From NCBI RefSeq assembly GCF_014490725.1, contig NZ_JACOQL010000004.1, positions 62,001-126,000 on the forward strand: 64,000 bases of DNA. Reading direction: 5' to 3'. The notes beneath the pieces were generated by a model. It was not told the origin of the DNA. It saw nothing but the letters and a program-made list of their open reading frames with translations, and made no database searches. The DNA is from Paracoccus amoyensis. GTDB taxonomy: Bacteria; Pseudomonadota; Alphaproteobacteria; Rhodobacterales; Rhodobacteraceae. Positions 5,702 through 21,304 of the stretch are shown piece by piece. The translations under genes and the position numbers were made by a program. Each line of letters begins with the position of its first letter. The first letter of the stretch is position 1.

Positions 5702-6265
5702 TTATTCCGCAGCGATTGCCAGTGGCGCCGGATCATCCTGTAACGCCGCAAGAAGCTGGGTTTGCGTCTGCGCGATGATCCCGTTGATCCGCGCTGGCGA
5801 CAGGCCAAAGCGGCGTGCCACGTCCTTTTGCAGACAGTCGTCGATCCGATGGCTTAGGAATATCCGGCGATGTTGCGGGGGCAAATTGTCCATCTGCGAC
5901 ACCACCCGCGCAAGGTCTTCCTTTGCTTCCATTTGCCTTTCGGTGTTGGGACGCGAACAGGGCAGTTCCTCGCCGGGTTCCAGCACGACAATTTTTTCCC
6001 GCGCCGATCTGCGGCATTGATCCAGCGCCAGATTTTGAACCATACGACGCACAAAGCCACGCGGGCTGTTGATCTGGTCCGCAATCGCCCGGCTTTCCAT
6101 GCAGCGGATCGCGGCGTCCTGCACCACATCTTCCGCGCGGTCCCGGCTGCCGAGAATGCGCATGGCGTCACATAAAAGAACCTCTCGTTCATTCACCAGA
6201 TATGACAGCAACTTCAAGCGTGCAGCTGCACAGGCATCTGCCTGTTTGGATTCGTCATGGGGCAT
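5702..6265 (-). CDS. ECF RNA polymerase sigma factor (FecI/PvdS/RpoI-like)
   Basis: The 187-residue protein has region 2 around residues 35-100 (core binding and -10 contact, with SRDRAEDVVQDAAIRC and the Trp-less PRGFVRRMVQNLALDQCRR) and region 4 around residues 115-175 (LPPQHRRIFLSHRIDDCLQKDVARRFGLSPARINGII, the -35-reading helix-turn-helix). No FecR-like anti-sigma gene is next to it, and the nearby receptor lacks a signalling domain, so it resembles PvdS or RpoI, whose amounts are set by iron repressors, rather than FecI. The expected targets are the siderophore promoters at 10888-10915, 10944-10972 and 17453-17478. No iron-repressor box was recognised with confidence upstream. Confidence 0.88.
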   Translation of the reverse strand: MPHDESKQADACAAARLKLLSYLVNEREVLLCDAMRILGSRDRAEDVVQDAAIRCMESRAIADQINSPRGFVRRMVQNLALDQCRRSAREKIVVLEPGEELPCSRPNTERQMEAKEDLARVVSQMDNLPPQHRRIFLSHRIDDCLQKDVARRFGLSPARINGIIAQTQTQLLAALQDDPAPLAIAAE

Positions 6266-6368
6266 GATTCAACCCAGATTTCAGACATTTTTTCTGTCTT
6301 CCTGGCGAAAGGCTGGGTCGATCACGAAAGCCTTAATCGTATCACGCGGCGTAAACAAGCATCGCGTC

Positions 6369-6437: not shown

Positions 6438-7715
6438 CTATTCTGCCGCCACCGCGTTCATGTGGCGATTGTGAAATGCCTCTAGCGCCAGGGCGATTTC
6501 CTCTGACCGGAAGGGCAGGACGGACAGCAAGGTATCGCTTAGCCCATGCGTCGCCTCGCTGAAGCCCTGCACAAAGATTGCCGGTTCGAAATGATCGGCC
6601 ATTGGCAGGCGGTAATTGCGATCCGGGGGCCCCTTGCGCCATGGCGTCAGCGATTTCAACATCGCGTCATCAAGATCACGGCGGTATCCGGTCGCCAGAA
6701 TGACCAGATCAAAGTCAGCCGCCACCGCCCCTTGCGGGCCGGTCATGTTCAGCGTGACCGATTGATCCGTGGCGGCGACCGCCTGTATCTGAGTTTCTGC
6801 CGTCAGCAGAAGGCGATCCTCACCGCGCACGTCCTGTTCATACAACATTTCGTAAATTTGCTCGATCAGGTCGCCGTCGACCACGGCATAATTGGTCGCC
6901 GCCAGATTTTGCAACATGCGCTGACGGTCAGCTTCGGGCTTTGCATGAAAGATTTCGGTCTGGCCCGGATCGAAGACTTCATTGACGAAGGGCGTATCGT
7001 CCGATGGCATCAGCGCGCGGCCACGCAAAATCAGTTGCACGCCCGCAATCTGGGGACGCTGCGCAAGGTCTGTGAATATCTCGGCCGCCGATTGCCCGCC
7101 GCCGATGACGGCCACACGCATGCCCGGCTTGATCCGTGCTGTCGTTGCGGACAGATAGTCCTGTGCGTGGATGACCTGTGACGTGCCCTGAACCGGGCGG
7201 AAGATCTCTGGCCAATGCGGCTGTCCGCCCGGCGCCAGGACGAGACTGCGCGTGCGATAGATGCGCGATTGCCCATTGCTGCTTTCCGATGTGACAGCCA
7301 GTTCAGTGATATGATCGCCCCGGCCAACCGGATCAATGGCGGTCACACGGCTATCATAGTGGCAGACAGGCAATTGCGCCGCGACCCAACCCAGATAATC
7401 GTTGAATTCTTCCCTGCTTGGGAAAAACGTCTTGCGATTGATGAACCGGGACAGGCGTCCCTTGTCGTGCAGATAGCTGACAAAGGAATATGCGCTGCGC
7501 GGGTTTCGCAGCGACACCAGATCCTTCATGAAGGACACCTGCATATCGCTGCCCGCGATCATCATGTCGGGGTGCCAGGCGAATTGCGGCCGCGCCTCAA
7601 GAAACGCCGCTCGCATGTTGTGGCCACGCTCTTGCAACGCGATGGCCAAGGCCAGATTGGATGGGCCGAAGCCAATGCCGATCAGGTCGAAAACATCGGA
7701 TGTTGCCTCTGTCAT
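6438..7715 (-). CDS. L-ornithine/L-lysine N-monooxygenase (SidA/PvdA/IucD family)
   Basis: The 425-residue flavoenzyme hydroxylates the side-chain amine of ornithine (N5) or lysine (N6), the first committed step of hydroxamate siderophores. Seen in order: FAD-binding GIGFGPSNLALA (residues 13-24), the substrate region MQVSFMKDLVSLRNPRSAYSF, NADPH-binding VAVIGGGQSAAEIF near residue 205, and the C-terminal LVILATGYRRD. It is the last of four genes that overlap or touch (10834 down to 6438). Its ATG overlaps the previous stop by four bases (ATGA) and follows AAGGAG. Sequence alone does not settle ornithine versus lysine; the vicibactin-like gene set favours ornithine. Confidence 0.9.
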   Translation of the reverse strand: MTEATSDVFDLIGIGFGPSNLALAIALQERGHNMRAAFLEARPQFAWHPDMMIAGSDMQVSFMKDLVSLRNPRSAYSFVSYLHDKGRLSRFINRKTFFPSREEFNDYLGWVAAQLPVCHYDSRVTAIDPVGRGDHITELAVTSESSNGQSRIYRTRSLVLAPGGQPHWPEIFRPVQGTSQVIHAQDYLSATTARIKPGMRVAVIGGGQSAAEIFTDLAQRPQIAGVQLILRGRALMPSDDTPFVNEVFDPGQTEIFHAKPEADRQRMLQNLAATNYAVVDGDLIEQIYEMLYEQDVRGEDRLLLTAETQIQAVAATDQSVTLNMTGPQGAVAADFDLVILATGYRRDLDDAMLKSLTPWRKGPPDRNYRLPMADHFEPAIFVQGFSEATHGLSDTLLSVLPFRSEEIALALEAFHNRHMNAVAAE

Positions 7716-8773
7716 TCGGATTCTCCTTTCGTCAGAAGACGGTTGAGGGACAGGTTCAGTGGCTTTCCGCTGCCGGTTTCCGGACGCGCCCAGATGCGGG
7801 TTTCAAAGAAATGTTGCCGTTCCAGCCGCACCAGCGAGGCACGCTTGTGGGCAAAATCAAACTCCCGCAGATGGGCAAAGCCGCATTGGCTGAGGTTTTT
7901 CAACTGCTTGACGTGGCTTGCCTTGGGCTCTCCCATGATCGACTGGGTGCGCGGCTCGGCCAGAAACATGTAATGCATCAGCGATGGCATCCATGCGGTG
8001 ACGTAATCGGCCCCGCGAATATCCTCTTCTCCGATCAGCACATGCCAGCCACGATCCCACGGACCCGCATCATATTGGGCGCCAAGGCGGTTCTCACGCG
8101 CCCAATACAGTTCGAAATAGGCGAAGTCGCGGTCGTTCAGGCTGCCGATCACCGGCAGGATATGCGGATCGGCGATCAGACGGGACAGATAGGCGCGATG
8201 CGCGTCGAGACTGCCGGATTCCTCAAAAAATTCAGCGACGCGCGGATCGTTCTGCCAGCGATGAAACGTCGGCAGATCGTTCATGGTCATGGCCCGCAGG
8301 CTGAACCAGCCATCAAGCCAAGGAATATAGCGGCGATACAGCACCCCTTCGGGCTGTGGCGGGCGCAATGGGTGACGCCCATGCGGGCCGCTGCGCCAGA
8401 TGGTCGGGTAGGGCATTGGCATGGACGGAAGCCAGCGATCCGGCACCTGCCACAGGGCGGCGGGCAGAACGGTGGGCAGGCCGTCGATCAAGATGGCGGT
8501 CCCCTTGGCCAGAAGGGCGGGAAGAAACGGTCGCCATTCCGGGGCCGTCAGGCGAATGGCCGTTTCGCCGCCGTGGTTGGTCAAGGCCTCGAATGCGGCC
8601 AATGCGATGGCCATGGCAAGATCGGGGTCGGCCTCGGTGTCGGCGACTTGCGGGGCGGACAGGGTTAACCAGCCATCCCCGGAATCGGTCAGATCAAGCG
8701 GGGCGTGGTGGCCGATCACGACCTGATTGCCCTGGCGGCGTGCCAGCAGGTTGGGCGTCATGTCAAGCGGCAT
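7712..8773 (-). CDS. Siderophore N-acyltransferase (IucB/VbsA-like, GNAT fold)
   Basis: The 353-residue protein has an N-terminal extension of about 150 residues and a C-terminal GNAT domain marked by HRWQNDPRVAEFFEESG, by the central YWARENRLG, and by RGWHVLIGEEDIRG, whose His is the likely catalytic or acceptor-orienting residue. Family members transfer an acyl group from acyl-CoA to the hydroxylamine made by the N-monooxygenase, giving the iron-binding hydroxamate. The start follows AAAGGAG; the gene overlaps the esterase gene by 11 bases and the hydroxylase gene by 4. If the product is a lactone, the acyl group should carry a hydroxyl, for example 3-hydroxybutyryl as in vicibactin; that is inference. 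Confidence 0.85.
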   Translation of the reverse strand: MPLDMTPNLLARRQGNQVVIGHHAPLDLTDSGDGWLTLSAPQVADTEADPDLAMAIALAAFEALTNHGGETAIRLTAPEWRPFLPALLAKGTAILIDGLPTVLPAALWQVPDRWLPSMPMPYPTIWRSGPHGRHPLRPPQPEGVLYRRYIPWLDGWFSLRAMTMNDLPTFHRWQNDPRVAEFFEESGSLDAHRAYLSRLIADPHILPVIGSLNDRDFAYFELYWARENRLGAQYDAGPWDRGWHVLIGEEDIRGADYVTAWMPSLMHYMFLAEPRTQSIMGEPKASHVKQLKNLSQCGFAHLREFDFAHKRASLVRLERQHFFETRIWARPETGSGKPLNLSLNRLLTKGESE

Positions 8774-9671
8774 CGGAAACTCCTTTCAGGCGCGGCAGTG
8801 CTTCGGGCGTCAAGGCAAAGGCCCAGCGGATCGCCCGGTTCACGGCCATGGGCAGAACCGACATATGGGTTTCATCAGAATAGGTTTCGTAGAACACGTG
8901 CAGCCCGCGACCGGCCAGCGCACGGGCCATGTTTTCGGCTGCCTGAACCGTACGGGTCTGTGTCTTTTCAACCATTCGCGCTGCTGCATCGGGCGCCCCA
9001 CGCTGAAACGGGGCCAGCTCAGCCCCCTCCCATTCCCCTGCGGACAGGTGGACGCGTGCCGCGCCTGATGTCGGATGAAAACGATCAAGATGGGCCTGCA
9101 GAAAACCGTTTTCCCAGGTGATCGCGGGGCTGGCAGCGATCCAGTTGGCAAAGGTATCGGGCTGCGTGAACAGCAGCCACAGCGTGAACAGCCCACCAAA
9201 GGAATGGCCAAACAGCGACTGCCGGGACAGGTCCAGCGGCAATTCCTCGGCCAGAAAGGCGCGGACATCCTGTTGCAGAAACCGGGCCATTTCGGCCCCG
9301 CCGCCGGTTTTGACGGGTGGTCCGCCCTCGTGGAAGGCGGGATAGGCCTGACCGGGAGGTGGACCCAGATCCCAACTGCGGCGGAAGGAATCATAAGCCT
9401 CATCCGTGGGATAGCCGACCGCGATCAGTGCACCCCAGCCGATATTGGTGCCCATTGGCCAGAAGGCCTGCGCACGCATCGCATCGACCGCCGTGCCGAT
9501 GACAGCGTTGCCATCCAGCAACCACAGGGCGGGCCAGCCGTTTTCGGGGGCGGGCACGGGCGGCACCCACAGAAAGACACGGCGAATATCGCCGGTCACG
9601 CTGTCGGCCAGGTCGAACCAGCGCGTTCCGCCGGAATCCGCCTGTCCCTTGGCGACGACGGTTACACTCAT
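8763..9671 (-). CDS. Siderophore esterase (IroE/Fes-like alpha/beta hydrolase)
   Basis: The 302-residue alpha/beta hydrolase of the esterase D family has the nucleophile motif GHSFGG near residue 153, a late acid residue and a C-terminal His in YSDETHMSV near residue 272. Family members open ester bonds of siderophores to release iron or recycle the ligand. No signal peptide is seen, so it should act in the cytoplasm after import. Its presence inside the biosynthetic operon is the main reason to think the product has ester links. It overlaps both neighbours (ATGA with the PLP-enzyme gene, 11 bases with the acyltransferase gene). Confidence 0.82.
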   Translation of the reverse strand: MSVTVVAKGQADSGGTRWFDLADSVTGDIRRVFLWVPPVPAPENGWPALWLLDGNAVIGTAVDAMRAQAFWPMGTNIGWGALIAVGYPTDEAYDSFRRSWDLGPPPGQAYPAFHEGGPPVKTGGGAEMARFLQQDVRAFLAEELPLDLSRQSLFGHSFGGLFTLWLLFTQPDTFANWIAASPAITWENGFLQAHLDRFHPTSGAARVHLSAGEWEGAELAPFQRGAPDAAARMVEKTQTRTVQAAENMARALAGRGLHVFYETYSDETHMSVLPMAVNRAIRWAFALTPEALPRLKGVSDAA

Positions 9672-10834
9672 GCAGCCACCGCCGTGGCACTATCCAATGC
9701 ATGGGTCAGGTCTGCCATCAGCTCCTCTGCCGGCTCCAATCCCGCAGCCAGCCTGATGCAGCGCGGGCTGACACCAAAGCGGCGGAAGGAATTGGCAGCC
9801 CCGGCCAGCCCACAGGCGGCGGCACCCGGCACGATCAGGCTTTCTGGCCCGCCCCAGCTGACGCCGATGCGAATCCGGCGCAGGGCATTGCAGAAGCGTT
9901 CGGGATCGACGCCGTCGGCCAGATCAAAGGCGAACAGGCCGCCGAAACCGCGCAATCCCTCGGGGCGATTGGCCAGCAGGGCGGGATGATGGATCCGTGT
10001 GACCGATGAGTGGGCTTCCAGCATCCGGGCCAGGGCCAGGCCGGTTTCCATGTGGCGCTGCATCCGCAGATCCAAGGTGCGCATCCCCCGCAAGATCAGG
10101 AAAGCATCCATTGGCGACATGCGACCGCCAAACAGATGCGTCGCTTCGTGGTCGATCTTGCGGATCAGATCGCGCGAACCGGCAACCAGACCGCCCAGAG
10201 TATCGCTGTGGCCCGACAGGTATTTCGAGGCCGCATGCACCATCAGATCAATGCCCAGATCGGCCGGTTTCTGAAAAATAGGCGTGGCCCAGCTGTTGTC
10301 GATGACCGACATGACGCCATGCTGCCGCGCTGCCGCGCCGATGGCGCGCAGGTCCTGCAACCGAAACGTCCACGAGGTCGGGCTTTCCAGATAAACCAGC
10401 CGCGCCCCCGGCAGCGCCTCGATCATGGCCTGCGTGTCGCTGCCATCGACATAGACCGTTTCAACGCCAAAGCGGGACAGCACGTTTTCAAACAGGCGAA
10501 ACGCGTCTGAATACAGATGTTCGACCGCTACGATCCGATCGCCGGATTTCACAAAAGGCATCACCGCCCCGCAGATTGCGGCCATGCCGGATGAAAAGCC
10601 ACGCGCGGCCTTGGTTCCTTCCATGCGGGCGATCAGCCCCTCTAATTCGCTGACGGTCGGATTGTCCCCACGCGAATAGATGAACCGGTCCGAGCGTCCG
10701 GCAAAGACATCCGCAATCTGGGAATAGCTGTCGAACAGGAAGGACGAGCTTTGAAAGATCGGCGGCGCGCTGGCGTCATGCGGAATTGTCGTCGCGGGTG
10801 TGATCAGATCGGGTTGATGCGGGGAAGATGTCAT
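9668..10834 (-). CDS. PLP-dependent enzyme of the cystathionine gamma-synthase/lyase family
   Basis: The 388-residue fold-type I enzyme has YSRGDNPTVSELE near residue 55 (phosphate-binding region) and the Schiff-base lysine in ASKYLSGHSDTLGG near residue 200. The ATG at 10834 was chosen over one 13 codons upstream because AGGAA lies seven bases before it. It is first in the four-gene siderophore operon and has its own ECF-type promoter. The usual family reactions are trans-sulfuration or gamma-elimination of sulfur amino acids. Why such an enzyme heads a hydroxamate operon is unclear: it could supply or modify the amino acid precursor, or act as a racemase-like or lyase activity. Family is secure, role is not. 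Confidence 0.8.
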   Translation of the reverse strand: MTSSPHQPDLITPATTIPHDASAPPIFQSSSFLFDSYSQIADVFAGRSDRFIYSRGDNPTVSELEGLIARMEGTKAARGFSSGMAAICGAVMPFVKSGDRIVAVEHLYSDAFRLFENVLSRFGVETVYVDGSDTQAMIEALPGARLVYLESPTSWTFRLQDLRAIGAAARQHGVMSVIDNSWATPIFQKPADLGIDLMVHAASKYLSGHSDTLGGLVAGSRDLIRKIDHEATHLFGGRMSPMDAFLILRGMRTLDLRMQRHMETGLALARMLEAHSSVTRIHHPALLANRPEGLRGFGGLFAFDLADGVDPERFCNALRRIRIGVSWGGPESLIVPGAAACGLAGAANSFRRFGVSPRCIRLAAGLEPAEELMADLTHALDSATAVAA

Positions 10835-10887
10835 TCGATCATTCCTGATATCGGACAAGGACCGGGTGTTCACCCTGGTTTCCCTGA

Positions 10888-10915
10888 CAGGACGCGCGTC
10901 GTGGATGGAAATTCA
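10888..10915 (-). promoter_or_regulatory. Predicted ECF-sigma promoter of the PLP enzyme-esterase-acyltransferase-hydroxylase operon
   Basis: On the minus strand: GGGTGAATTT, with TGAAT at 10915-10911, then exactly 16 bases, then CGTCCTG at 10894-10888. This is the same layout as the mbtH and receptor promoters and close to the PvdS type TAAAT-N16/17-CGT. The start codon is 54 bases downstream. Confidence 0.65.
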
Positions 10916-10943
10916 CCCATAAGGCGAGATTTTTTCGAATCCC

Positions 10944-10972
10944 GGTGAATTTTCGGCCTTGGGACGCGTCCC
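10944..10972 (+). promoter_or_regulatory. Predicted ECF-sigma promoter of mbtH-NRPS
   Basis: GGTGAAT at 10944-10950, 16 bases, then CGTCCC at 10967-10972, 30 bases before the mbtH start. It is divergent from the promoter at 10888-10915. The -10-like part lies within an 18-base perfect palindrome (10958-10975). Confidence 0.65.
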
Positions 10973-10975
10973 AAG
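10958..10975. promoter_or_regulatory. Perfect 18-bp palindrome over the mbtH promoter
   Basis: CTTGGGACG is followed directly by its reverse complement CGTCCCAAG. It covers the proposed -10 element, so a dimeric regulator bound here would block or modulate transcription. It could also be a chance result of the CGTCCC element itself being mirrored. No matching copy was noticed at the other two ECF-type promoters. Confidence 0.45.
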
Positions 10976-11001
10976 AACGAAGCATCCGAACGAGGTTCGA
11001 C

Positions 11002-11205
11002 ATGACCCAACCGATTCCCGCCCAGCCACTATGGCGTGTGCTGCGCAACCATGAAGGGCGGTATTCGCTGGCCCTGTTCCATCATGACATCCCCGCAGGC
11101 TGGCAACAAATCGGTATGCCCGCGTCCAAAACCGACTGTTTGCAGCGCATCGCGCAGGACTGGACGGATATGCGGCCAAACAACCTGAAGGAGATCATGG
11201 CATGA
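11002..11205 (+). CDS. MbtH-like protein (NRPS adenylation-domain partner)
   Basis: The 67-residue protein has the MbtH hallmarks: an N-terminal region with N-HEGRYSLA, the PAGW motif, and Cys/Trp-containing C-terminal part ending DWTDMRPNNL. MbtH proteins bind the adenylation domain and are often needed for its solubility or activity. The ATG at 11002 follows CGAGG with six bases between. The stop overlaps the NRPS start (ATGA), so the two are made together. Confidence 0.93.
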   Translation: MTQPIPAQPLWRVLRNHEGRYSLALFHHDIPAGWQQIGMPASKTDCLQRIAQDWTDMRPNNLKEIMA

Positions 11206-14200
11206 GCAAGGATTTTCTTTTGCCGCCGGGTCGCAAGTTGAATTCGGTCGAACGCCGCATCTTTGCGCATGAACAGGTGGGCGAATTGGCCCCTTTCGCG
11301 CCCGAAATTCTGGCGCTGCAATTTGATGACAGCCATGACCCTGCACAGCTGATCAGCGCGATCGAAAACGTGCTGTCGCAGCATCCGGCCTTTACCGCGC
11401 GGTTTGCCACTTTGCCGGGCGGTGATGCACTGCGCCATCAGGACGGGCAAACGGTTCTGGTCTATCACAAGGCCGGGCACAAGGCCGGAACCGCCGATCA
11501 GGCGCTGGCCTTTGCCCGTGATTTGCGCCCGGCCATCGCAGCCAAGCCTGCCTATGCCGATCTTTGGACCGATGGGCAGGGCGGGCATGTGTTGACATTG
11601 GTGATCCATCCCATTCTTGGCGACGATGGCTGTTTCGCCTCGGTCGAGGGAATGTTGTCGCAGTTTTTGGCAGGCGATGATCTGGTCGCCTTGCCCGTGC
11701 CCAACGCTGACGACCTGTCGCGAACCGAACGTGCCGCGCGGCTGGCATGGTGGGCCGATCAGATGGACAATCATGCCATTGCGCGCCTGCCTCATCGTGC
11801 CGAACCGACCGGCAGCACCGCCCGTTTTCAGGTCCAGCTTGATCTGGATGCCGACCTGTCGCAAGCGATCCGTCAGGCGGGTGCCGAAACTACGATATCC
11901 GCGGCGATGTCGCTGTTATTGTCGCGCTATGGCGGGCAATCCGCGCTGCGATTTGCAATTGGGATCAATGCTGCTGACACGACCGTGCGCAGTGGAAATC
12001 TGCTGCCGCTTTGTCTTGGCCCGGATTTGACGACCGGGTTTCAGGCCGCGCTGACGGCGATGCGAACCTATTGGCATCGGGCACAGGCGAACGCCCTGCC
12101 GTCCGAGCTTTTGGTGCAAGAGCGGCTGACCCGCGAAAACGCCGACCCGCTGCCCTTGGGCGCGATTTCGCTGCATTGCCAAGCCTTTCGCCCGTTGCCA
12201 TCCGGCGTGACGCGGTTGCAGCGCCCGCGGCCACCCTCGGCCGAGGAAATGGTGCTGACCGCCGAAGACCGTGGCCACGTGATCCGCATGACAGCGAATG
12301 CCCGGCAAGGGTTGCTGGAACCGGCATTGGTGCAACGGATGCTGACGCATCTGCAGCGGATACTGCAACAGGGGCTGGCCCAGCCGGACGCACCCGTTGG
12401 CCGTATGCCGCTGCTGTCACAGCAGGAACTGGCCGATCTTTCCGCCCCTTATCCTGACGACACCCCTGCCGACCCGCGGGCGACGCATGAAATCATTGCG
12501 GCCCATGCGGCAAGGGTGGCCGACAAGGTGGCCATCATCTGTGGCGATACGCAGATCACCCATGGCGACATGGACGCCCGCGCAAACGCCCTGGCGCACC
12601 GGCTGATCTCGATGGGTGTCGGTGCCGAGGTTCCGGTCGCCATCATGGTTGAACGTGGGGCCGAGGCGATCATTGCGATTCTGGCGGCGCTGAAAGCCGG
12701 CGGGGCCTATATCCCGGTCGAGCCTGACCACCCTGCCAGCCGCAATCACCACATCCTGACCGATGCGGGGGTGCGCGTCGTGCTGACCCGCCGCCAGTAT
12801 CGCGACAAGCTGCCCGACGGGCTAAGCGCCGAAATCCTGTGTCTTGAGGACGTCACCGATCCGCCCCGCAGCGATGCGCCGGATGTCACGATCCACCCGG
12901 ATCAGTTGGCCTACATCATGTATACCTCTGGCTCGACCGGGAAGCCCAAGGGCGTTGCCGTCGAACATGGCCCGCTGTCCCATCACAACCAGACCACAGC
13001 CCGCGTCTATGAAATGAGTGAAGAAAGCCGCGAGCTGCCCTTTCTGCCGTTTTCGTCGGATGGAGGGCATGAACGCTGGATGGTTCCGCTGATGATGGGC
13101 GGATCGGTCGTGGTGCCCGATGGGCCGCTGTGGACGCCCGAGCAGACGTTGAATGCGATGCGCGAACATGGCTGCAACAATGCCTCGATCCCGACGACCT
13201 ATCTGCAGCAGCTTGCCGAATGGGCCGAGCAGACGGATTCCGCCCCACCGATGCGGCTGTATTCCTTTGGTGGCGAAGGGTTGGCGCAATCGACCTTTGA
13301 TCTGCTCAGCCGATCGCTGAATGCGAAACTTCTGATCAACGGCTATGGCCCGACCGAAACCATCATGACGCCGATGGTCTGGAAGGTGCAGGCAGGCACG
13401 AAATTCGAAGGCGTCTATGCCCCGATCGGTCGCGCTGTCGGGGATCGCCGCGCCTATGTGCTGGACGCCGAGATGATGCCCTGTCCGCAAGGCGCCGTGG
13501 GCGAGGTTTATCTGGGCGGCACGGGGGTTGCGCGGGGCTATGTCGGCAAGCCCGACGTGACTGCGGATCGTTTTGTCCCCGACCCGTTCGGTCCCGAACT
13601 GGACGGCACATCCGGCGCGCGGCTGTATCGCACCGGCGATCTGGGCCGCTGGCGCGAGGATGGCACAATCGAATTTGTCGGACGCGTCGATCTGCAGGTC
13701 AAGATCAACGGCTATCGGATCGAACCCGGCGAAATCGAAGCCGCGCTGCTGGCCCAACCGCTTGTGTCCGAGGCGTTGGTGTTGCTGCGCGAGGATGGCG
13801 GGACCAAACGGCTGATCGCCTATGTCACCGGCCCGGAGGCAGACGACCCCGCCAGCGGAGATGCGCTGTTGGCCGCATTGTCCGCCAAGCTGCCCCGGCA
13901 CATGCTGCCCGAGGCTGTGATGGTCCTGGACCGCATGCCCACCAATCCCAATGCCAAACTTGATCGCGCGGCGCTGCCTTTGCCAGAAAACCGCAGCCGT
14001 GCCGCCAAGGGCGTGCCCGCCGAGGGCGAGGCCGAGCAGCAGATATTGGCAATCTGGCGTGATCTGATTGATGCGCCCGCCATGGGGGTCACCGATGATT
14101 TCTTTGCCATGGGGGGACGGTCGCTGACGGCGTTGAAGGCTCTGGCGCGGATGCGTCAGTTGTGGCCCGACCGCGCCCTGACCATTGCCGATCTGTTTGA

Positions 14201-15083
14201 TGCCCCGACCGTGCGCGGCATCGCCCAGCGGATCAGCGACACGGGTCAAACCGGCCGTTCCGCCATCGCCCTGCGGCGCACAGGCACGCAGCCACGGCTT
14301 TACTGTTTTCCGGGTCTGCTTGTGTCAACGCGCGAATATCTGCGCCTGACCGATTATCTTGGTGCCGACCAGCCAGTGACCGGTTTCCTGTGTCACTCCC
14401 TGAATGAGGAAAAGCGACTGAATGTCTCGGTCGCGGATGTGGTGGCGGAGTATGTCGATCATATCCGGCGCGAAAGCGCGGGACAGCCCTGCGCTTTCCT
14501 TGGCTGGTCATGGGGGGGCCTGCTGGCATGGGAAGCGGCGCGGCAGTTGCAGGGGCAGGTTGATCTGCGTCTGATCGGCATGGTCGATGTCTGCGATCTG
14601 GGCCGCGATTTCACGCCCGGTGCCGATCCCGAATTTGCGCCCGGCGAACGGGATCAGTTGGAGCGGGAATTGCAGGAGTGGCTGGGAAAAACCAGGATGC
14701 GCCCGCAATGGGACCGGCTGATTCAGGCGATGGACGCCGAGTGCTATGCCCAGTTCCTGCGCTTCATCGGGAATGAGGCTGAGCCGTTGCCCTTTGACGG
14801 CCCCGAAATCTCTAGCCGAGAGCATACTTTCTGGGTGCTGATCGACAATGCACTGGTCTTTCGCAGGCACCGGGTCGAGGCGCTGGACGTTCCCGTTGCA
14901 TCCTTCAGCGCGGGTGACAGCCTTAGCCGCGGGCTGAACCTGATCGACTGGCGCAGGCTGTCTGTGGGCGCAACCCCGGCAGACATCGTCAGCGGCACCA
15001 ACCACCTGCACATCATCGGCGAACGCGCCTTCCACGAGCGTTTCAAGACGCGACTGGATGCGGCCTTTGCGGGTGTGGGCTAG
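11202..15083 (+). CDS. Single-module siderophore NRPS (degenerate C - A - PCP - TE)
   Basis: 1293 residues. A condensation-like region occupies about 10-395. The adenylation domain is about 410-930, with YTSGSTGKPKG (574-584), YGPTET (715-720), YRTGDLGRW (809-817), a GRVDLQVKINGYRIEPGE stretch from 827, and the late Lys in NPNAKLDR (919). The carrier domain has GGRSL with Ser 974, and the thioesterase has GWSWGG with Ser 1103 and likely His 1268. In the C domain, HHxxxDG reads HPILGDD (136-142), so the second, catalytic His is Pro. In the A domain, core A4 reads FSSDGGHE, without the usual FDxS. As with EntF and VbsS, one module ending in TE implies repeated use and release as an oligomer, often a macrolactone. 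Substrate is inferred as N-acyl-N-hydroxy-ornithine or lysine. Confidence 0.9.
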   Translation: MSKDFLLPPGRKLNSVERRIFAHEQVGELAPFAPEILALQFDDSHDPAQLISAIENVLSQHPAFTARFATLPGGDALRHQDGQTVLVYHKAGHKAGTADQALAFARDLRPAIAAKPAYADLWTDGQGGHVLTLVIHPILGDDGCFASVEGMLSQFLAGDDLVALPVPNADDLSRTERAARLAWWADQMDNHAIARLPHRAEPTGSTARFQVQLDLDADLSQAIRQAGAETTISAAMSLLLSRYGGQSALRFAIGINAADTTVRSGNLLPLCLGPDLTTGFQAALTAMRTYWHRAQANALPSELLVQERLTRENADPLPLGAISLHCQAFRPLPSGVTRLQRPRPPSAEEMVLTAEDRGHVIRMTANARQGLLEPALVQRMLTHLQRILQQGLAQPDAPVGRMPLLSQQELADLSAPYPDDTPADPRATHEIIAAHAARVADKVAIICGDTQITHGDMDARANALAHRLISMGVGAEVPVAIMVERGAEAIIAILAALKAGGAYIPVEPDHPASRNHHILTDAGVRVVLTRRQYRDKLPDGLSAEILCLEDVTDPPRSDAPDVTIHPDQLAYIMYTSGSTGKPKGVAVEHGPLSHHNQTTARVYEMSEESRELPFLPFSSDGGHERWMVPLMMGGSVVVPDGPLWTPEQTLNAMREHGCNNASIPTTYLQQLAEWAEQTDSAPPMRLYSFGGEGLAQSTFDLLSRSLNAKLLINGYGPTETIMTPMVWKVQAGTKFEGVYAPIGRAVGDRRAYVLDAEMMPCPQGAVGEVYLGGTGVARGYVGKPDVTADRFVPDPFGPELDGTSGARLYRTGDLGRWREDGTIEFVGRVDLQVKINGYRIEPGEIEAALLAQPLVSEALVLLREDGGTKRLIAYVTGPEADDPASGDALLAALSAKLPRHMLPEAVMVLDRMPTNPNAKLDRAALPLPENRSRAAKGVPAEGEAEQQILAIWRDLIDAPAMGVTDDFFAMGGRSLTALKALARMRQLWPDRALTIADLFDAPTVRGIAQRISDTGQTGRSAIALRRTGTQPRLYCFPGLLVSTREYLRLTDYLGADQPVTGFLCHSLNEEKRLNVSVADVVAEYVDHIRRESAGQPCAFLGWSWGGLLAWEAARQLQGQVDLRLIGMVDVCDLGRDFTPGADPEFAPGERDQLERELQEWLGKTRMRPQWDRLIQAMDAECYAQFLRFIGNEAEPLPFDGPEISSREHTFWVLIDNALVFRRHRVEALDVPVASFSAGDSLSRGLNLIDWRRLSVGATPADIVSGTNHLHIIGERAFHERFKTRLDAAFAGVG

Positions 15084-15097
15084 GGCAATCGCTGATA

Positions 15098-15135
15098 TGA
15101 AACAGGCGGGCCGAATTTACGGCCCGCCTGTTTCA
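15098..15135. terminator. Bidirectional terminator hairpin between NRPS and receptor genes
   Basis: A perfect 16-bp stem (left arm TGAAACAGGCGGGCCG) with the 6-base loop AATTTA, placed between two converging genes, 14 bases from each stop. The outer pairs supply A/T-rich flanks on both strands, so it can end transcription both ways. Confidence 0.85.
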
Positions 15136-15149
15136 GTTCATCAGGAAAC

Positions 15150-17321
15150 TTAGAAGCTGCGGGACAGTGTCAGCGTCGCATTGCGACCAGCCCCGCTGAT
15201 GCAGCCAACCGACGTATCACAGGTTGCATAATATTCCTTGTCCAGAACATTGTTGACATTCAGGGCCACGGTATAATCGTCCCATTCATAATGCACGGCC
15301 ATGTCGACCAGTGTATATGACGCGACCTGCCGTGTATTTCCATTGTCGCCATAGCTGGAGCCGATATAGCGCAGGCCACCACCAAGACTTAGCCCGTCCA
15401 TCGTATTCTGAAAATCATAGTCCATCCAGAGCGAGGCCTGATGACGTGGTGCACGTGCGGTCAAATTGCCTTCATCGCCGTCCTGGGACCGAGTAATTTT
15501 CGGATCAAGATAGGTATAGCCCGCGATCAGGGAAAACCGATCGCTCAGCGCTCCGCGTGCTTCAAGTTCTAACCCGCGATGTCGAACCTCGCCCGTCTGG
15601 ATAGAGAATTGGGGATGGTCCGGGTCACTGGTCAGCACGTTGGTCTTGGTAATTTCGAACAGGGCTGCCGACAGCATCATGTTGCCATCCGTGGGAACAT
15701 AACGCAGGCCAACTTCATACTGCTTGCCTTCGGTAGGTTCGAACTGCGAGCCATCGAATTTTTGACCGATATTGGTGGTGAAGCTTTCCGTATAGCTGGC
15801 GTAGGGAACAAAGCCGTTACCCATATCATAGGTCAGACCCAGTAAGCCGGTAGTAGCCGTATCTTTTTGACGAGCAGTTGAATCCGTCAGCCGATTGTAG
15901 GCCTTATTTTCGACCCAAGCGCGGCGTAGGCCGGCTGTAACGGACACACCGTTTTGCAACTTCAGATGATCCTGCAAATACACGCCCTTTTCGGTCACCA
16001 CAGTGCGTGAGTTCTGATAGATCGCCGGATAGGTGACGTCGAAATCATAGCTTGGGTTGCGAATGTCGATCTGGTAGCTGGCGTCATATGCAGACGTTCC
16101 GTCCACTTCCTGTCGGACATAATCGGCGCCGAACAGCAGCGTATTGTCACCGCCAGCAAGTTTCGAACGATATTCGATCTGATTGTCCAGCGCCGTATGA
16201 CGAGCAACCTCATCGACTGCGAAGGCTGCGTAGTTCATGGAATCCTCAGTGGGATTCCAATCCGGGTCATGCATTCCGTTGAAGTAAAGATGACGATAGT
16301 CGGTGCGTTGACGTGCATAGCGGAAGTTCTGACGCAGGGTGAGTTGTTCAGTCAGATCGTGCCGTGCCTGCCATCCAATGCTTGTTTGCTCGGTGGCGAA
16401 CCGGTTGAAGTCATGCTGACTATCGGTGAAGTCATAGGGCAGATCGCCATAGCTTGCCGGATAGTCTTCGCCCGCCACTGGAAGGAAAACGTTCGGCGTT
16501 CGGTCATCCTTCTGCCAGTGCCCAAGCAGGGTGACAGAAGTCCGGTCCGTCGGTTCCCATGTCAGGCCCAGGGCAACCATATCTCGATCATCCTCGGATC
16601 CCTCGATCTCGCTGGCACCGTCGCGCTTCAGCGCCGTCAGACGCCATGCCAATGTCTTGTCCTTGTCCAATGCACCGCCGGCATCCAACCCGATCGATGC
16701 GGTGTCATGCGAACCATAGGAAAGCTGCGCTTCGGCGAATTGATCGAATACGGGACGCTTGGTTATGATGTTGATCATTCCGGCCGCGTCGTTTGAGCCA
16801 TACACGACAGAAGCTGGACCCCGCAGCACATCGATCCGTTCGATCATGTAGGGGTCAATTACGAAACCGGTGAAGTTCTGTGCCTTTGACGACAGCCCGT
16901 CGCGATAGATGCCACTGGTTCCCAAATCGAAGCCACGGATCAGGAATTGATCGTAACGGTCATCGACGCCCCAGATGCCAGAGGTGACGCCGGGCACATA
17001 GGCGACCGCTTCATCCACGTTTGTCGGCGCCCGATCCTGCAACTCTTCTGATGTGACGACAGACACGGATTGCGGGATTTCCGTCAACGGCGCACCTGAC
17101 TTAAGACCGGTCGCTGTGCTCGTCGCCAGATAGCCATCGATGGCGCCAGTGTATTGCTGGCCTGCACGCAATGTAATCGGTGCCAGCACATAAGGCTCTT
17201 CAGCCGTGCCCTCTTGCGCGGTTGCCTGCATCGGCAGGCCAAGTGCGACCAGCGCAGTCGTGCGGAACAGGATCAGCGACAGGTGGCTGCGGCGTCGCAT
17301 GGTTGAAATCTCAGCAGTCAT
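15150..17321 (-). CDS. TonB-dependent siderophore receptor (outer membrane)
   Basis: 723 residues. After a long signal peptide (basic MRRRS then a hydrophobic stretch ending ATAQ) comes the plug domain, with IPQSVSVVTSEEL near residue 85, VLRGPASVVYGSNDAAGMINI near 165, and a 22-strand barrel ending in the outer-membrane signature LSRSF (C-terminal Phe). There is no 70-80 residue STN signalling domain before the plug. It should carry the ferri-siderophore into the periplasm. GAGGAA abuts the first ATG, and a second ATG seven codons on is possible. An ECF-type promoter lies upstream at 17453-17478. It is next to the NRPS and the importer, so it is probably the cognate receptor. Confidence 0.95.
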   Translation of the reverse strand: MTAEISTMRRRSHLSLILFRTTALVALGLPMQATAQEGTAEEPYVLAPITLRAGQQYTGAIDGYLATSTATGLKSGAPLTEIPQSVSVVTSEELQDRAPTNVDEAVAYVPGVTSGIWGVDDRYDQFLIRGFDLGTSGIYRDGLSSKAQNFTGFVIDPYMIERIDVLRGPASVVYGSNDAAGMINIITKRPVFDQFAEAQLSYGSHDTASIGLDAGGALDKDKTLAWRLTALKRDGASEIEGSEDDRDMVALGLTWEPTDRTSVTLLGHWQKDDRTPNVFLPVAGEDYPASYGDLPYDFTDSQHDFNRFATEQTSIGWQARHDLTEQLTLRQNFRYARQRTDYRHLYFNGMHDPDWNPTEDSMNYAAFAVDEVARHTALDNQIEYRSKLAGGDNTLLFGADYVRQEVDGTSAYDASYQIDIRNPSYDFDVTYPAIYQNSRTVVTEKGVYLQDHLKLQNGVSVTAGLRRAWVENKAYNRLTDSTARQKDTATTGLLGLTYDMGNGFVPYASYTESFTTNIGQKFDGSQFEPTEGKQYEVGLRYVPTDGNMMLSAALFEITKTNVLTSDPDHPQFSIQTGEVRHRGLELEARGALSDRFSLIAGYTYLDPKITRSQDGDEGNLTARAPRHQASLWMDYDFQNTMDGLSLGGGLRYIGSSYGDNGNTRQVASYTLVDMAVHYEWDDYTVALNVNNVLDKEYYATCDTSVGCISGAGRNATLTLSRSF

Positions 17322-17452
17322 TTCCTCACCAGAATTTTTTGCGCAAGCGGATGCGCGAGAGAGCGGACGAATGGAAATAAGCGCAAGATAGGGGGCGTCC
17401 CGTTGCCTAAGGCCGGCCCCTGTCTTGCGTTTGGCTTTCCCCTCACAGCCAT

Positions 17453-17478
17453 GACGATGACCGACACGAAAAATTCAC
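17453..17478 (-). promoter_or_regulatory. Predicted ECF-sigma promoter of the TonB-dependent receptor
   Basis: On the minus strand: GTGAAT (17478-17473), 16 bases after TGAAT, then CGTC (17456-17453). It has the same spacing as the two promoters at 10888-10972 and lies about 130 bases upstream of the start codon. Confidence 0.62.
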
Positions 17479-17543
17479 TGGTTTGGGAAGTTTTTTTGAT
17501 CGGCGGTGAATGAACGTGACCAATCAGACAGGATCAGCCGGAA

Positions 17544-17650: not shown

Positions 17651-18616
17651 ATGATTTCGGGACTGACCATTGGTGCCGCGCTGGCGTCATTGGCGGTGGG
17701 CGCGCGGGATTTGCCTTGGGGTGACGTGCTGGTGGCATTGTTCCGGTTTGATCCGTCGCGGGCGGCTGATGTCATTATCTGGGAAATGCGGGTGACGCGC
17801 ACCATTACCGGACTTGCTGTCGGTGCCGCGCTGGCCGCAGCGGGACTGGTGATGCAGCAGATCAGCCGTAACCCCTTGGCCGATCCGGGGATCCTGGGGA
17901 TCAATGGCGGCGCGGCGCTTGGCGTTGTCCTGTCGATCTGGTTTTTGGGGTGGCGCGATCCTTTGTCTCAGTCGGGTGTCGCCGTGGCAGGGGCGGGGCT
18001 GGCTGCACTGTTCGTCTATCTTCTGGGACGCGGAGGCCGTGCGGCAGACAGCGCCGCGATCCTGCGGCTGACATTGGCGGGGATTGCCGTGTCGGCGCTG
18101 TGTCTGGCGGTCGTGTCGGCCGTTGTGCTGATTGATCAGGGCACGCGCAATCTTTATCGCTTCTGGACCATCGGCTCGCTGGCGGAAGATAGCCAGGGTC
18201 GGCTGTGGTGGCTGTTGCCGCTGATTGCCGCCGGATTGGCGATTGCGGCGCTGATGTCGCGCAAGATGGATGCATTGGCCCTTGGGGCTGACAGTGCCCG
18301 CAGCTTTGGCATCTCTGTTCCGGTCACGGTTGGCGCGGCGCTTTTGTCGGTGGCGCTTTTGGCGGGCGGGGCGGTGGCGTTGGCCGGTCCGATTGGTTTC
18401 GTCGGCCTGATCGTGCCGCATGTGACGCGCAGGCTGGTCGGCCCGTCAATCCTGCCGGGCCTGCTGGTCGCCGTGCCAATGGGCGGGGCCGTTTTGCTGT
18501 TATGCGATGTCGTGGGCCGTATCCTTGCCCGCCCGGCCGAGATTCAGACAGGCATCATCCTTGCCCTGATCGGCGGTCCGGTCTTTCTGGCGCTGATGGC
18601 CAAGGTGGTTCGCTGA
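17651..18616 (+). CDS. Iron-siderophore ABC permease, FecCD family (first subunit)
   Basis: The 321-residue membrane protein of the FecCD/BtuC family has about nine to ten helices, with GAALAAAGLVMQQISRNPLADPGILGINGGA near residues 57-88 (the family signature, cytoplasmic coupling region) and a C-terminal GPIGFVGLIVPH. The start at 17651 has no good ribosome site, and eleven sense codons upstream (reading RFWLTIS before the Met) look like part of a FecC N-terminus. Either a non-standard start is used, or one base is missing near the GTG at 17620. The stop overlaps the next gene (TGATG). It works with 18616-19584, the ATPase at 19581 and the binding protein at 20348. Confidence 0.9.
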   Translation: MISGLTIGAALASLAVGARDLPWGDVLVALFRFDPSRAADVIIWEMRVTRTITGLAVGAALAAAGLVMQQISRNPLADPGILGINGGAALGVVLSIWFLGWRDPLSQSGVAVAGAGLAALFVYLLGRGGRAADSAAILRLTLAGIAVSALCLAVVSAVVLIDQGTRNLYRFWTIGSLAEDSQGRLWWLLPLIAAGLAIAALMSRKMDALALGADSARSFGISVPVTVGAALLSVALLAGGAVALAGPIGFVGLIVPHVTRRLVGPSILPGLLVAVPMGGAVLLLCDVVGRILARPAEIQTGIILALIGGPVFLALMAKVVR

Positions 18617-19584
18617 TGGGGCGCCTGTTGATCGTGGCAGCCGTTGCGGCGGTTTTCCTGCTGGATCTTGCTGTGGGGCGTATCTGGCTGTCGTTGGACG
18701 ATATGTGGCAGGTCGCGCGGCACGGGCCGGGGGCCGAGCATTGGATTCTGGTCTATGAGCTGCGTTTGCCCCGGATCGCGACGGCGGTCGGGGCCGGTGC
18801 GGCCTTTGGTCTGGCGGGGGGGATTTGCCAGTCGCTGTTTCGCAACCCTTTGGCCGCGCCCGAGATGCTGGGCGTCACGGCGGGTGCGTCGTTGGGCGCG
18901 GTCGGGTTGGTTCTGGCCGGTTTTCAGGGCGCGGTGGTTGGGTTGGGCGCGGGGTGCGGTGCCATTCTGGCCGTCGTCCTGCTGCTGATCCTGGCGGGAG
19001 GTGCCCCGGCGGTGACGCGGCTGATCCTGACCGGGGTGGGCATTTCCCTGACGGCAAGTGCGCTGACCGGGTTGTTGTTAAGCCGGGCTGATGATGCGCT
19101 GGCGGGTGATGCGATGCTGTGGTTGACGGGGTCGCTGAACGGGCGACACTGGCCGCAAGCCCGACTGATCTGGGGGGCGTTGCTCCCGCTGCTGCTATTA
19201 AGTGTCGCAGGTGCCCGCTGGCTGGACCGGTTGGAGTTGGGCGACGATCTGGCACAAAGTCTGGGCGTGCCGGTGCGGATGGCGCGCATGGTGCTGATCC
19301 TGCTGGCGGCGGCCCTGATTGCGGCGGCGGTATCCGTCACTGGTCCGGTGGGCTTTGTCGGCCTGATGGCGGGGCCGATTGCCCGCAGCCTGTCGCGGCA
19401 CAGTGGCCCGGACCTGATCGGCGCGGCGTTGGTCGGGGCGCTGATCATGGTGCTGGCCGATCTGATGGTCACGCTGACCGCGTTCCGGGTTTTGCTGCCG
19501 GTGGGCATATTCACCGGGCTTCTGGGGGCGCCGTGGCTGATCTGGCTGCTATGGCGCGACACGTCCGAGCGGAGGGTGATGTGA
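18616..19584 (+). CDS. Iron-siderophore ABC permease, FecCD family (second subunit)
   Basis: The 322-residue inner-membrane protein has the same FecCD fold as its upstream neighbour: a signature ICQSLFRNPLAAPEMLGVTAGA near residues 70-92, and GPVGFVGLMAGPIAR in the C-terminal third. The ATG at 18616 overlaps the upstream stop and begins a typical N-terminal helix; earlier in-frame starts would run back into the upstream gene. The two permeases are similar but not identical, as in FecC/FecD and FepD/FepG, and form the heterodimeric channel. Confidence 0.92.
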   Translation: MGRLLIVAAVAAVFLLDLAVGRIWLSLDDMWQVARHGPGAEHWILVYELRLPRIATAVGAGAAFGLAGGICQSLFRNPLAAPEMLGVTAGASLGAVGLVLAGFQGAVVGLGAGCGAILAVVLLLILAGGAPAVTRLILTGVGISLTASALTGLLLSRADDALAGDAMLWLTGSLNGRHWPQARLIWGALLPLLLLSVAGARWLDRLELGDDLAQSLGVPVRMARMVLILLAAALIAAAVSVTGPVGFVGLMAGPIARSLSRHSGPDLIGAALVGALIMVLADLMVTLTAFRVLLPVGIFTGLLGAPWLIWLLWRDTSERRVM

Positions 19585-20351
19585 GCCTGAACATCGACAG
19601 TATTTCCATCGCCTATGGCACCCACCTTGTGATCAAGGGGTTAAGCCTGACCATTCCCAAAGGCGCGGTGACAGCGATCATCGGCCCGAACGGCTGCGGC
19701 AAATCCACGCTGTTGCGGGGAATTGCAGGCCTGCTGCCCTTGCAGCGCGGTCGGATCGTGTTGGATGAAAACCCGGTGGCTCAGATGCGGCCAAGCGCCC
19801 TGGCGCGCCGTCTGGCCTTGCTGCCCCAAGCGCCTCTGGCCCCGGAAGGCATCCGGGTTCAGGAATTGGTCACACGCGGCAGAACGCCCTGGCTGCGCCC
19901 GTTCAGACCGCCAGCCGCAGCAGACCGGGATGCGGTGGAACGTGCCATGCACGCGGCGGGGGTCGCCGAGATGCGCCACCGCCGGGTCAGCGACCTGTCC
20001 GGCGGCCAGCGGCAGCGGGTCTGGATCGCCATGGCTTTTGCACAGGAAACCGAATGGCTGCTGCTGGATGAACCAACGACATGGCTGGACCTGCCGCATC
20101 AGCTGGAGGTGTTGCATCTGATCCGGCGTCAAAGCAGCGAGGCCTCGCGCAGTATGGTAATGACCTTGCACGATATTTCGCTGGCCGCGCGGTTTGCGGA
20201 TCATGTGATCGCGTTGCGTGATGGCGATCTGGTCGCACAAGGACCGGCGCATCAGGTGATCACGCCAGAGGTTCTGAAGCGCAGTTTTGGCCTGAAGGCC
20301 CAGGTCATCCCCGATCCGCTGCATGGCACACCGCTGGTTTTGCCGCGATGA
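19581..20351 (+). CDS. Iron-siderophore ABC transporter ATP-binding protein (FecE/FepC type)
   Basis: The 256-residue ATPase has Walker A GPNGCGKST (about residues 35-43), signature LSGGQRQR (about 138-145) and Walker B LLLDEPT (about 160). The GTG start at 19581 follows GGAGGG and overlaps the stop of the permease (GTGA); no in-frame ATG exists at the right place. It ends four bases into the binding-protein gene (ATGA), so permeases, ATPase and binding protein are translationally coupled. Confidence 0.93.
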   Translation: MSLNIDSISIAYGTHLVIKGLSLTIPKGAVTAIIGPNGCGKSTLLRGIAGLLPLQRGRIVLDENPVAQMRPSALARRLALLPQAPLAPEGIRVQELVTRGRTPWLRPFRPPAAADRDAVERAMHAAGVAEMRHRRVSDLSGGQRQRVWIAMAFAQETEWLLLDEPTTWLDLPHQLEVLHLIRRQSSEASRSMVMTLHDISLAARFADHVIALRDGDLVAQGPAHQVITPEVLKRSFGLKAQVIPDPLHGTPLVLPR

Positions 20352-21304
20352 GATATCTTGCCCGATTGCTGCTTGTCCTTGTCGCCCTGACCCTGCTGCC
20401 GCGATCCGTCACGGCGCAGGATTTTCCGCGCACCGTCGAACATGCCTTGGGTGAAACGGTCATCCCCAAACGGCCGGAACGTATCGTCACCGTCGGTTAT
20501 CACGATCAGGATTTCGTCTATGCGCTTGGCATCGCGCCGGTCGGCGTGCATGAGTGGTTCGGGGGCAAGCCCTATGCCACATGGGTCTGGGCCGAGCCTG
20601 CACGTCAGGCGCTGAACGCGACGCCCCGGGTCCAGCAGGGGTTCGAGGTTGATATCGAATGGGTCTATGCCCAGAAGCCGGACCTGATCGTCTCGACCTT
20701 TTATAACCTTGATCCCTCGACTTATTATCTGCTGTCGCGAATTGCACCGGTGGTGGCCCAGCCCAAGGGCTATCCCGCATGGGGCGCCCCCTGGCAGGAA
20801 GAACTCAGACTCATCGGTCAGGCCACGGGAACCGAGGCGCGGGCAGAAACCATCATCACCGATCTGCAAGCACGCATCGCGGGCTTGGCGGCGGCCAATC
20901 CGCAGTTTCGCGACAAAACAGCAACCATCGGCTTTTTCGCGGCGGATCATTTCGTCGGTTATGGCAGCACCGAGGGTGCCAATCGTCTGCTGTCACAGCT
21001 TGGCTTTCAGGCACCGCCGATCTTCGATGATCTGGTTCAGGCCAACGGACAGTTCTCGGTCAGCCCGGAACGTGTTGACCTGTTCGATATGGATGCGGTC
21101 GTCTGGCTGGTTGATCCGGTGACGGCCGAACGCATTCAGGGCATGCCGGTCTATCAGAACACCGATCTGTCGCGTGAGGGGCGTTCGGTCTGGCTGGACG
21201 ACGATCTGAACGGCGCCCTCAGTTTCATGTCGCCGCTGTCCATCGGCTATGCGCTTGACCGACTTGCGCCACTGCTGCGAACCGCCGTTGATCCGTCGCG
21301 CTAG
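20348..21304 (+). CDS. Periplasmic ferri-siderophore binding protein (FepB/FecB-like)
   Basis: The 318-residue protein has a Sec signal peptide (MRYLARLLLVLVALTLLPRSVTA, cut before QDFP). There is no lipobox Cys, so it is a soluble periplasmic protein. The mature part is a type III binding fold (Peripla_BP_2): RPERIVTVGYHDQDFVYALG at the start of the first lobe, KPDLIVSTFYN, and the long connecting helix around RAETIITDLQARIAGL. It delivers the ferri-siderophore to the FecCD permeases. Placement at the end of the importer operon is normal for the group. Confidence 0.9.
   Translation: MRYLARLLLVLVALTLLPRSVTAQDFPRTVEHALGETVIPKRPERIVTVGYHDQDFVYALGIAPVGVHEWFGGKPYATWVWAEPARQALNATPRVQQGFEVDIEWVYAQKPDLIVSTFYNLDPSTYYLLSRIAPVVAQPKGYPAWGAPWQEELRLIGQATGTEARAETIITDLQARIAGLAAANPQFRDKTATIGFFAADHFVGYGSTEGANRLLSQLGFQAPPIFDDLVQANGQFSVSPERVDLFDMDAVVWLVDPVTAERIQGMPVYQNTDLSREGRSVWLDDDLNGALSFMSPLSIGYALDRLAPLLRTAVDPSR

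What the first reader, a model, noticed from the sequence alone, without database searches (positions are those of the whole stretch)
10888..17478. Shared promoter code GTGAAT-N16-CGTC at three siderophore promoters
Minus strand 10915-10888, plus strand 10944-10972 and minus strand 17478-17453 each have TGAAT, exactly 16 bases, then CGTC. The spacing and CGT resemble PvdS promoters (TAAAT-N16/17-CGT). They lie before the biosynthetic operon, mbtH-NRPS and the receptor, while the importer and the PPTase lack it. This gives a testable regulon for the sigma at 5702-6265.
Basis: partly seen in the sequence, partly recalled or inferred. Interest (0 to 1): 0.75.

Follow-up and report, generated by a model that had tools for sequence, protein, structure and literature searches.

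The report
Promoter code of a siderophore sigma factor
Three switches in front of a bacterium's iron-scavenging genes share one exact spelling that related bacteria with the same regulator keep at the same place, so this regulator probably runs mainly this one gene cluster.

Summary
GTGAAT-N16-CGTC stands at the three stated places. The two orthologous clusters of the genus (Paracoccus) carry three sites each, two of them at the same divergent spot. Over 13 Rhodobacterales clusters TGAAT-Nk-CGTC occurs 31 times at k=16 and 29 times at the 22 other spacings together. A pattern for the divergent pair occurs in exactly the 5 of 394 family genomes in which the sigma was found.

The cluster resembles the rhizobial vicibactin (vbs) cluster; the sigma resembles RpoI/PvdS. 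At the same divergent spot rhizobial clusters have TAAA[T/C]-N16-CGTC. So this is the PvdS/RpoI promoter with G for A in the -35 element. In two sister lineages one corresponding promoter has A in one and G in the other, so the sigma may accept both.

My idea that the recognition helix sets this base failed. The receptor promoter is peculiar to this genome: 1 of 11 receptor homologues in the genus has it. No transcription start or sigma mutant could be tested.

The parts
10891..10916 (-). Promoter of the biosynthetic operon: GTGAAT-N16-CGTC
   Evidence: same place in 13 of 13 Rhodobacterales loci; matrix score 22.8
10945..10970 (+). Promoter of mbtH-NRPS: GTGAAT-N16-CGTC
   Evidence: same place in 13 of 13 Rhodobacterales loci; matrix score 25.2
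17453..17478 (-). Promoter of the TonB-dependent receptor: GTGAAT-N16-CGTC; not found at 10 other receptor homologues of the genus
   Evidence: (score 16.0)
10929..10935 (.). A/T tract between the two divergent -35 elements; possible shared UP element (inferred)
   Evidence: Sequence; A/T fraction 0.73-0.74 at 11-20 bases upstream of the -35 over 31 sites
5702..6265 (-). ECF sigma factor of the PvdS/RpoI kind, proposed reader of the three promoters
6262..6323 (-). Leader of the sigma gene with a predicted hairpin; role open
   Evidence: z -2.98
6438..10873 (-). Biosynthetic operon: PLP enzyme, esterase-like hydrolase, GNAT acetyltransferase, Lys/Orn N-monooxygenase (first start codon uncertain)
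11002..15083 (+). MbtH-like protein (11002-11205) and one-module NRPS with thioesterase (11202-15083)
15150..17321 (-). TonB-dependent siderophore receptor with plug and barrel only
17651..21304 (+). Importer: two FecCD permeases, ATPase, periplasmic binding protein; no such promoter
4997..5683 (+). PPTase-like protein, convergent with the sigma; no such promoter

Best explanation
The three sequences are -35/-10 promoters read by RNA polymerase with the ECF sigma at 5702-6265, an iron-starvation sigma of the PvdS/RpoI kind: -35 GTGAATT, 16 bases after GTGAAT, -10 CGTC, with an A/T tract upstream of the -35. Iron shortage would raise the sigma through its own promoter, which lacks this motif (inferred). 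The sigma then switches on the divergent biosynthetic operon and mbtH-NRPS and, in this genome, the receptor, so that a vicibactin-type hydroxamate siderophore is made and taken up (product inferred from gene content). The regulon is mainly this one cluster. Shown by computation: motif, spacing, conservation, co-occurrence with the sigma, no clear further target in the own genome. Inferred: that this sigma reads the sites, iron control, product.
For: Three sites each in the two orthologous genus clusters. k=16 occurs 31 times against 29 at 22 other spacings over 13 loci. Divergent pair in exactly the 5 of 394 genomes with the sigma, reversed control 0. In 125 genus genomes 57 matches of GTGAATTT-N14-CGTC; only the three genomes with the cluster have three within 10 kb. 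Corresponding spot in 4 rhizobial-type loci: TAAA[T/C]-N16-CGTC, 8 of 8. Published PvdS box TAAAT-N16-CGT (PMC2235872, passages). In Methylobrevis, another order, CTGAAT-N16-CGTC lies 10 bases before a FhuF-like gene next to a related sigma.
Against: No transcription data. Pair and sigma lie in one inherited cluster, so their co-occurrence does not prove that one reads the other. The receptor site is absent at 10 of 11 receptor homologues, and alone it scores below the best of 20 shuffled windows. No clear iron box upstream of the sigma. Two lineages have a sigma with another recognition helix but the same promoters.
Confidence: 0.86

Rival explanations
1. The element is an operator of a DNA-binding regulator and not a sigma promoter; the inverted GTGAAT pair would be a spaced palindrome.
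For: The two GTGAAT face each other in the divergent region.
Against: The distance between the two TGAAT varies from 27 to 88 bases over 13 loci while TGAAT-to-CGTC is fixed at 16; single, unpaired sites occur before the GNAT gene in four loci; the rhizobial counterparts match the PvdS promoter.
Confidence: 0.06
2. The promoters are real but are read by another ECF sigma of the cell.
For: Three other weak sigma relatives are in the genome.
Against: Those match only at E 5.1e-6 or weaker; the divergent pair goes with this sigma in 5 of 394 genomes and is not found in the other 389.
Confidence: 0.06
3. The receptor site at 17478-17453 is a chance match and only the divergent pair is real.
For: None of the other 10 receptor homologues of the genus has it; its score of 16.0 is below the best of 20 shuffled windows, 20.4.
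Against: It has GTGAATTT, the exact spacing and an A/T run at the usual distance, lies directly upstream of the receptor, and scores far above the fourth-best place in the window, 7.5.
Confidence: 0.15

Closest known systems
RpoI of Rhizobium leguminosarum with the vbsGSO and vbsADL promoters (vicibactin)
   Same: Related sigma beside a cluster with MbtH, NRPS, N-monooxygenase, GNAT, PLP enzyme and PPTase; divergent promoter pair, 16-base spacing, CGTC. Transcription of vbsGSO and vbsADL by RpoI in vitro: known to me here only from a title in reference lists.
   Different: -35 TAAA[T/C] there, TGAAT here; the sigmas are about 30% identical; the monooxygenase follows the NRPS there and lies in the other operon here.
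PvdS of Pseudomonas with the iron-starvation box TAAAT-N16-CGT (PMC2235872, passages)
   Same: Spacing and CGT; sigma-driven siderophore synthesis
   Different: G for A in the -35. PvdS is held by the anti-sigma FpvR (PMC9249621, passages); no FecR-like protein was found among the neighbours scanned here.
FecI-type sigma with FecR and a signalling receptor
   Same: ECF sigma near a TonB-dependent receptor gene
   Different: The receptor shows plug and barrel only, no signalling domain was reported.

Membership tests
PvdS/RpoI iron-starvation sigma promoters | -10 CGT at 16 bases from the -35 pentamer | tested here: met
PvdS/RpoI iron-starvation sigma promoters | -35 TAAAT | tested here: not met
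   TGAAT in the window and in all 31 sites found with that pattern; TAAAT-N16-CGTC 0 in 13 loci. One TAAAT-N16-CGT, followed by T, lies before the GNAT gene in L198
PvdS/RpoI iron-starvation sigma promoters | Initiation by that sigma and induction under iron shortage | not testable with these tools
   No expression data
PvdS/RpoI iron-starvation sigma | ECF sigma with regions 2 and 4, related in sequence | tested here: met
   Pfam regions 2 and 4; passes the general ECF model but none of the curated equivalog cut-offs among the 25 rows shown; about 30% identical to the rhizobial sigma
FecI/FecR/receptor surface signalling | FecR-like anti-sigma beside the sigma | tested here: not met
   Neighbours of the sigma are a PPTase-like protein and the monooxygenase; not every reading frame of the window was scanned
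FecI/FecR/receptor surface signalling | N-terminal signalling domain in the receptor | tested here: not met
   Pfam shows plug and barrel only
Vicibactin-type siderophore cluster | N-monooxygenase, GNAT, PLP enzyme, MbtH, NRPS, PPTase, receptor | tested here: met
   compared with rhizobial clusters
Vicibactin-type siderophore cluster | The product itself | not testable with these tools
   Needs chemistry

The most novel reading that the evidence does not exclude
In Rhodobacterales the iron-starvation promoter code has moved from TAAAT to TGAAT at the siderophore cluster, with spacing, -10 and upstream A/T tract kept, and without the recognition helix deciding the base: sigmas with either helix type go with TGAAT, and one corresponding promoter has A in one lineage and G in its sister. 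These sigmas would read A and G alike at this position, so the code can drift inside a regulon of one cluster.
Probability: 0.45. Interest if true: 0.58.

Novelty: new variant of a known kind. Interest (0 to 1): 0.48.

Why it matters
It gives an explicit promoter code for a compact regulon, one sigma and one cluster with two to three promoters, that can be used to find such siderophore clusters in Rhodobacterales. With the rhizobial TAAAT version it is a natural experiment on how a sigma family and its -35 element change, in which the simple recognition-helix rule fails.

Tried and rejected
Recognition-helix rule: in the first loci helix LSPAR went with TGAAT and VS[P/R]TLVNFMI with TAAAT. Two further clusters, L198 and L199, have VSRTLVNFMI and VSRALINVMI with TGAAT pairs, so the rule is rejected. 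Of 53 genome contigs stretches with S[P/R/T]TLVNFM, 36 hold at least one TAAAT-N16-CGT and 29 at least one TGAAT-N16-CGT; these 20-kb stretches were not sorted into intergenic and genic, so this neither supports nor refutes it. Some residue columns separate the two groups (for example window residue 132), which relatedness explains as well.

Methylobrevis L040: I first dropped its site because it lies in a long open frame. On re-checking, this frame is a kinase followed by a FhuF-like part, and the site ends 10 bases before an ATG in front of the FhuF-like part, so it now counts as support.

Sigma-leader element: ACTCAGC-N-GGCAGA lies upstream of the sigma in 5 loci, two of them the near-identical Thioclava pair. 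5 of 13 leaders fold with z below -2, 7 of 13 have z between -1 and +1. The block occurs in 51 of 394 family genomes at scattered places and in none of the 5 genomes with the sigma in that exact spelling. Rfam gave nothing for the window or 12 loci. Not claimed as an RNA element.

Wider regulon: 67 sites with up to one mismatch in the own genome, reversed control 11. All were examined for coding context (72 rows because stretches overlap). Besides the three promoters five have a low coding score. By eye two of these lie in long frames, and one (L279) lies beside a receptor-like frame but points away from it. No family search was run on them.

Literature: searches (no hits; 15 of 1,531 papers listed) showed no report of this promoter; most subscription papers are not held. 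PMC8273931 (passages) reports that NRPS clusters of 13 Paracoccus strains partly resemble known siderophore pathways, vicibactin among the examples.

Full report
What is there. The three sites exist as described: GTGAAT, 16 bases, CGTC at minus 10916-10891, plus 10945-10970 and minus 17478-17453. They share GTGAATTT. The genes around them form a hydroxamate siderophore cluster: PLP enzyme, esterase-like hydrolase, GNAT, Lys/Orn N-monooxygenase and ECF sigma on the minus strand; MbtH and a one-module NRPS on the plus strand; a TonB-dependent receptor; a FecCD-type importer. The genome has 3.73 Mb. The genus is Paracoccus: a contig of genus member G107 has the length of P. aminophilus plasmid pAMI4 and the same three sites.

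More than chance. The own genome has 7 exact matches, 3 of them here; the reversed control has none. The other four lie in reading frames, although three of these have intermediate coding scores (0.18-0.28, against at most 0.08 at six known intergenic and at least 0.31 at ten known genic positions). The motif was chosen after looking, so I tested other DNA. The monooxygenase has a match in 6 of 125 genus genomes at E <= 1e-20, and two besides the own at 55% identity. Both of these clusters carry three GTGAATTT-N14-CGTC sites. In the 125 genomes this pattern occurs 57 times, 9 of these in the three clusters; no other genome has three within 10 kb; the reversed control occurs once.

Wider conservation. 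Over 13 loci (284 kb; the near copy L150 left out) TGAAT-Nk-CGTC occurs 31 times at k=16 and 29 times at the 22 other spacings from 8 to 30; TAAAT-N16-CGTC occurs 0 times. The 31 are two per locus at the divergent spot beside MbtH (26), one before the GNAT gene in each of L036, L037, L151 and L197 (4), and the receptor site of the window (1). TGAAT and CGTC are fixed by the search; independent of it, T follows in 31 of 31, then T in 28 of 31, and G precedes in 28 of 31. An A/T-rich stretch lies 11-20 bases upstream of the -35, also in the 8 rhizobial sites.

Link to the sigma. A profile of the sigma family finds it in 5 of 394 family genomes at E <= 1e-25, with at most 8 candidates scored per genome. 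A pattern for the divergent pair finds exactly the same 5 of 394, control 0. That pattern allows 20-50 bases between the two TGAAT; one of the 13 loci, L037, has 88 and would be missed. Clusters with a related monooxygenase but no sigma detected in the stretch (L152, L153, L156, L158) have no divergent TGAAT pair; L153 has one scattered site; L155 (Methylobacterium) has a TAAAT pair beside its MbtH gene; L154 (Microvirga) has a distant sigma relative and no pair. In Methylobrevis (L040) a related sigma has CTGAAT-N16-CGTC nearby, 10 bases before an ATG in front of a FhuF-like part of a long open frame.

Relation to known systems. The gene content resembles rhizobial vicibactin clusters, including MbtH-NRPS divergent from a second operon and a sigma gene in two of three rhizobial loci read. 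At the divergent spot of R. leguminosarum, R. acidisoli, Phyllobacterium and Azorhizobium stand 8 sites TAAA[T/C]-N16-CGTC, 5 TAAAT and 3 TAAAC. The published PvdS box is TAAAT-N16-CGT (PMC2235872, passages). RpoI is stated to be required for vicibactin synthesis (PMC3420878, passage); its in vitro transcription of vbsGSO and vbsADL I saw only as a title in reference lists. PvdS belongs to group ECF09 (PMC6180224, passages). So this is the PvdS/RpoI promoter with one changed -35 base.

A hypothesis that failed, and a clue. The region-4 helix looked as if it followed the base, but two Rhodobacterales clusters have the RpoI-like helix with TGAAT. These two, L198 and L199, also have a promoter-like site before the GNAT gene with CGTT in place of CGTC: ATAAATTTCCCC...TTCGTT in L198 and GTGAATTTCCCC...TTCGTT in L199. 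The corresponding site thus has A in one and G in the other. This suggests that the sigma tolerates both; it was found on re-checking and is a single case. A sigma tree is compatible with one change between the groups (unrooted, modest support).

The receptor promoter. Among 11 receptor homologues of the genus at E <= 1e-200, only the window's has TGAAT-N16-CGT upstream, although two others belong to genomes with the same kind of cluster. It looks like a local addition. Facing the importer stands GTGAAT at 17506-17511 without CGTC; it may be half of a divergent pair, or chance.

Control of the sigma. No such promoter lies upstream of it (best score -9.3), so direct autoregulation is not expected. 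No clear Fur or ICE match is there; the short IRO pattern has a match with one mismatch, and one of the same quality also lies between receptor and importer, so it says little. A conserved block follows in several relatives; the window's leader folds better than shuffles (z -2.98), but 7 of 13 leaders do not. Left open.

Limits. All evidence is comparative. No transcription start, mutant or iron response was available. Counts depend on the genomes sampled: the 394 family genomes are about one per genus.

Noticed in passing
window 6262-6323 minus strand; L038:9939-10004; L147:13398-13467; L196:4365-4430: The leader of the sigma gene has a conserved block (ACTCAGC...GGCAGAC in relatives) and in some genomes a strong predicted hairpin next to the start codon. 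Role unknown.
   Followed up: partly
L237-L240, L242, L149, L196, upstream of receptor genes: Receptor leaders often carry CC[N]AGGCA or similar shortly after a promoter-like TTGAC sequence; no Rfam family matches in the loci tested.
   Followed up: partly
window 17506-17511: A GTGAAT faces the importer at 27 bases from the receptor's -35, with a T run between, but without CGTC: possibly half of a divergent pair.
   Followed up: partly
L198:6725 minus strand and L199:14002 plus strand: Corresponding sites before the GNAT gene have TAAAT in one and TGAAT in the other, both with N16 and CGTT.
   Followed up: partly
L155 about 11775-11830: Methylobacterium bullatum plasmid cluster has a divergent TAAAT-N16-CGT pair beside MbtH although no sigma was detected in the 25-kb stretch.
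   Followed up: no
L147, L148, L149, L157: Many of these clusters lie on large plasmids (Pseudosulfitobacter, Thioclava, P. aminophilus pAMI4), which suggests transfer of cluster, sigma and promoters together.
   Followed up: no
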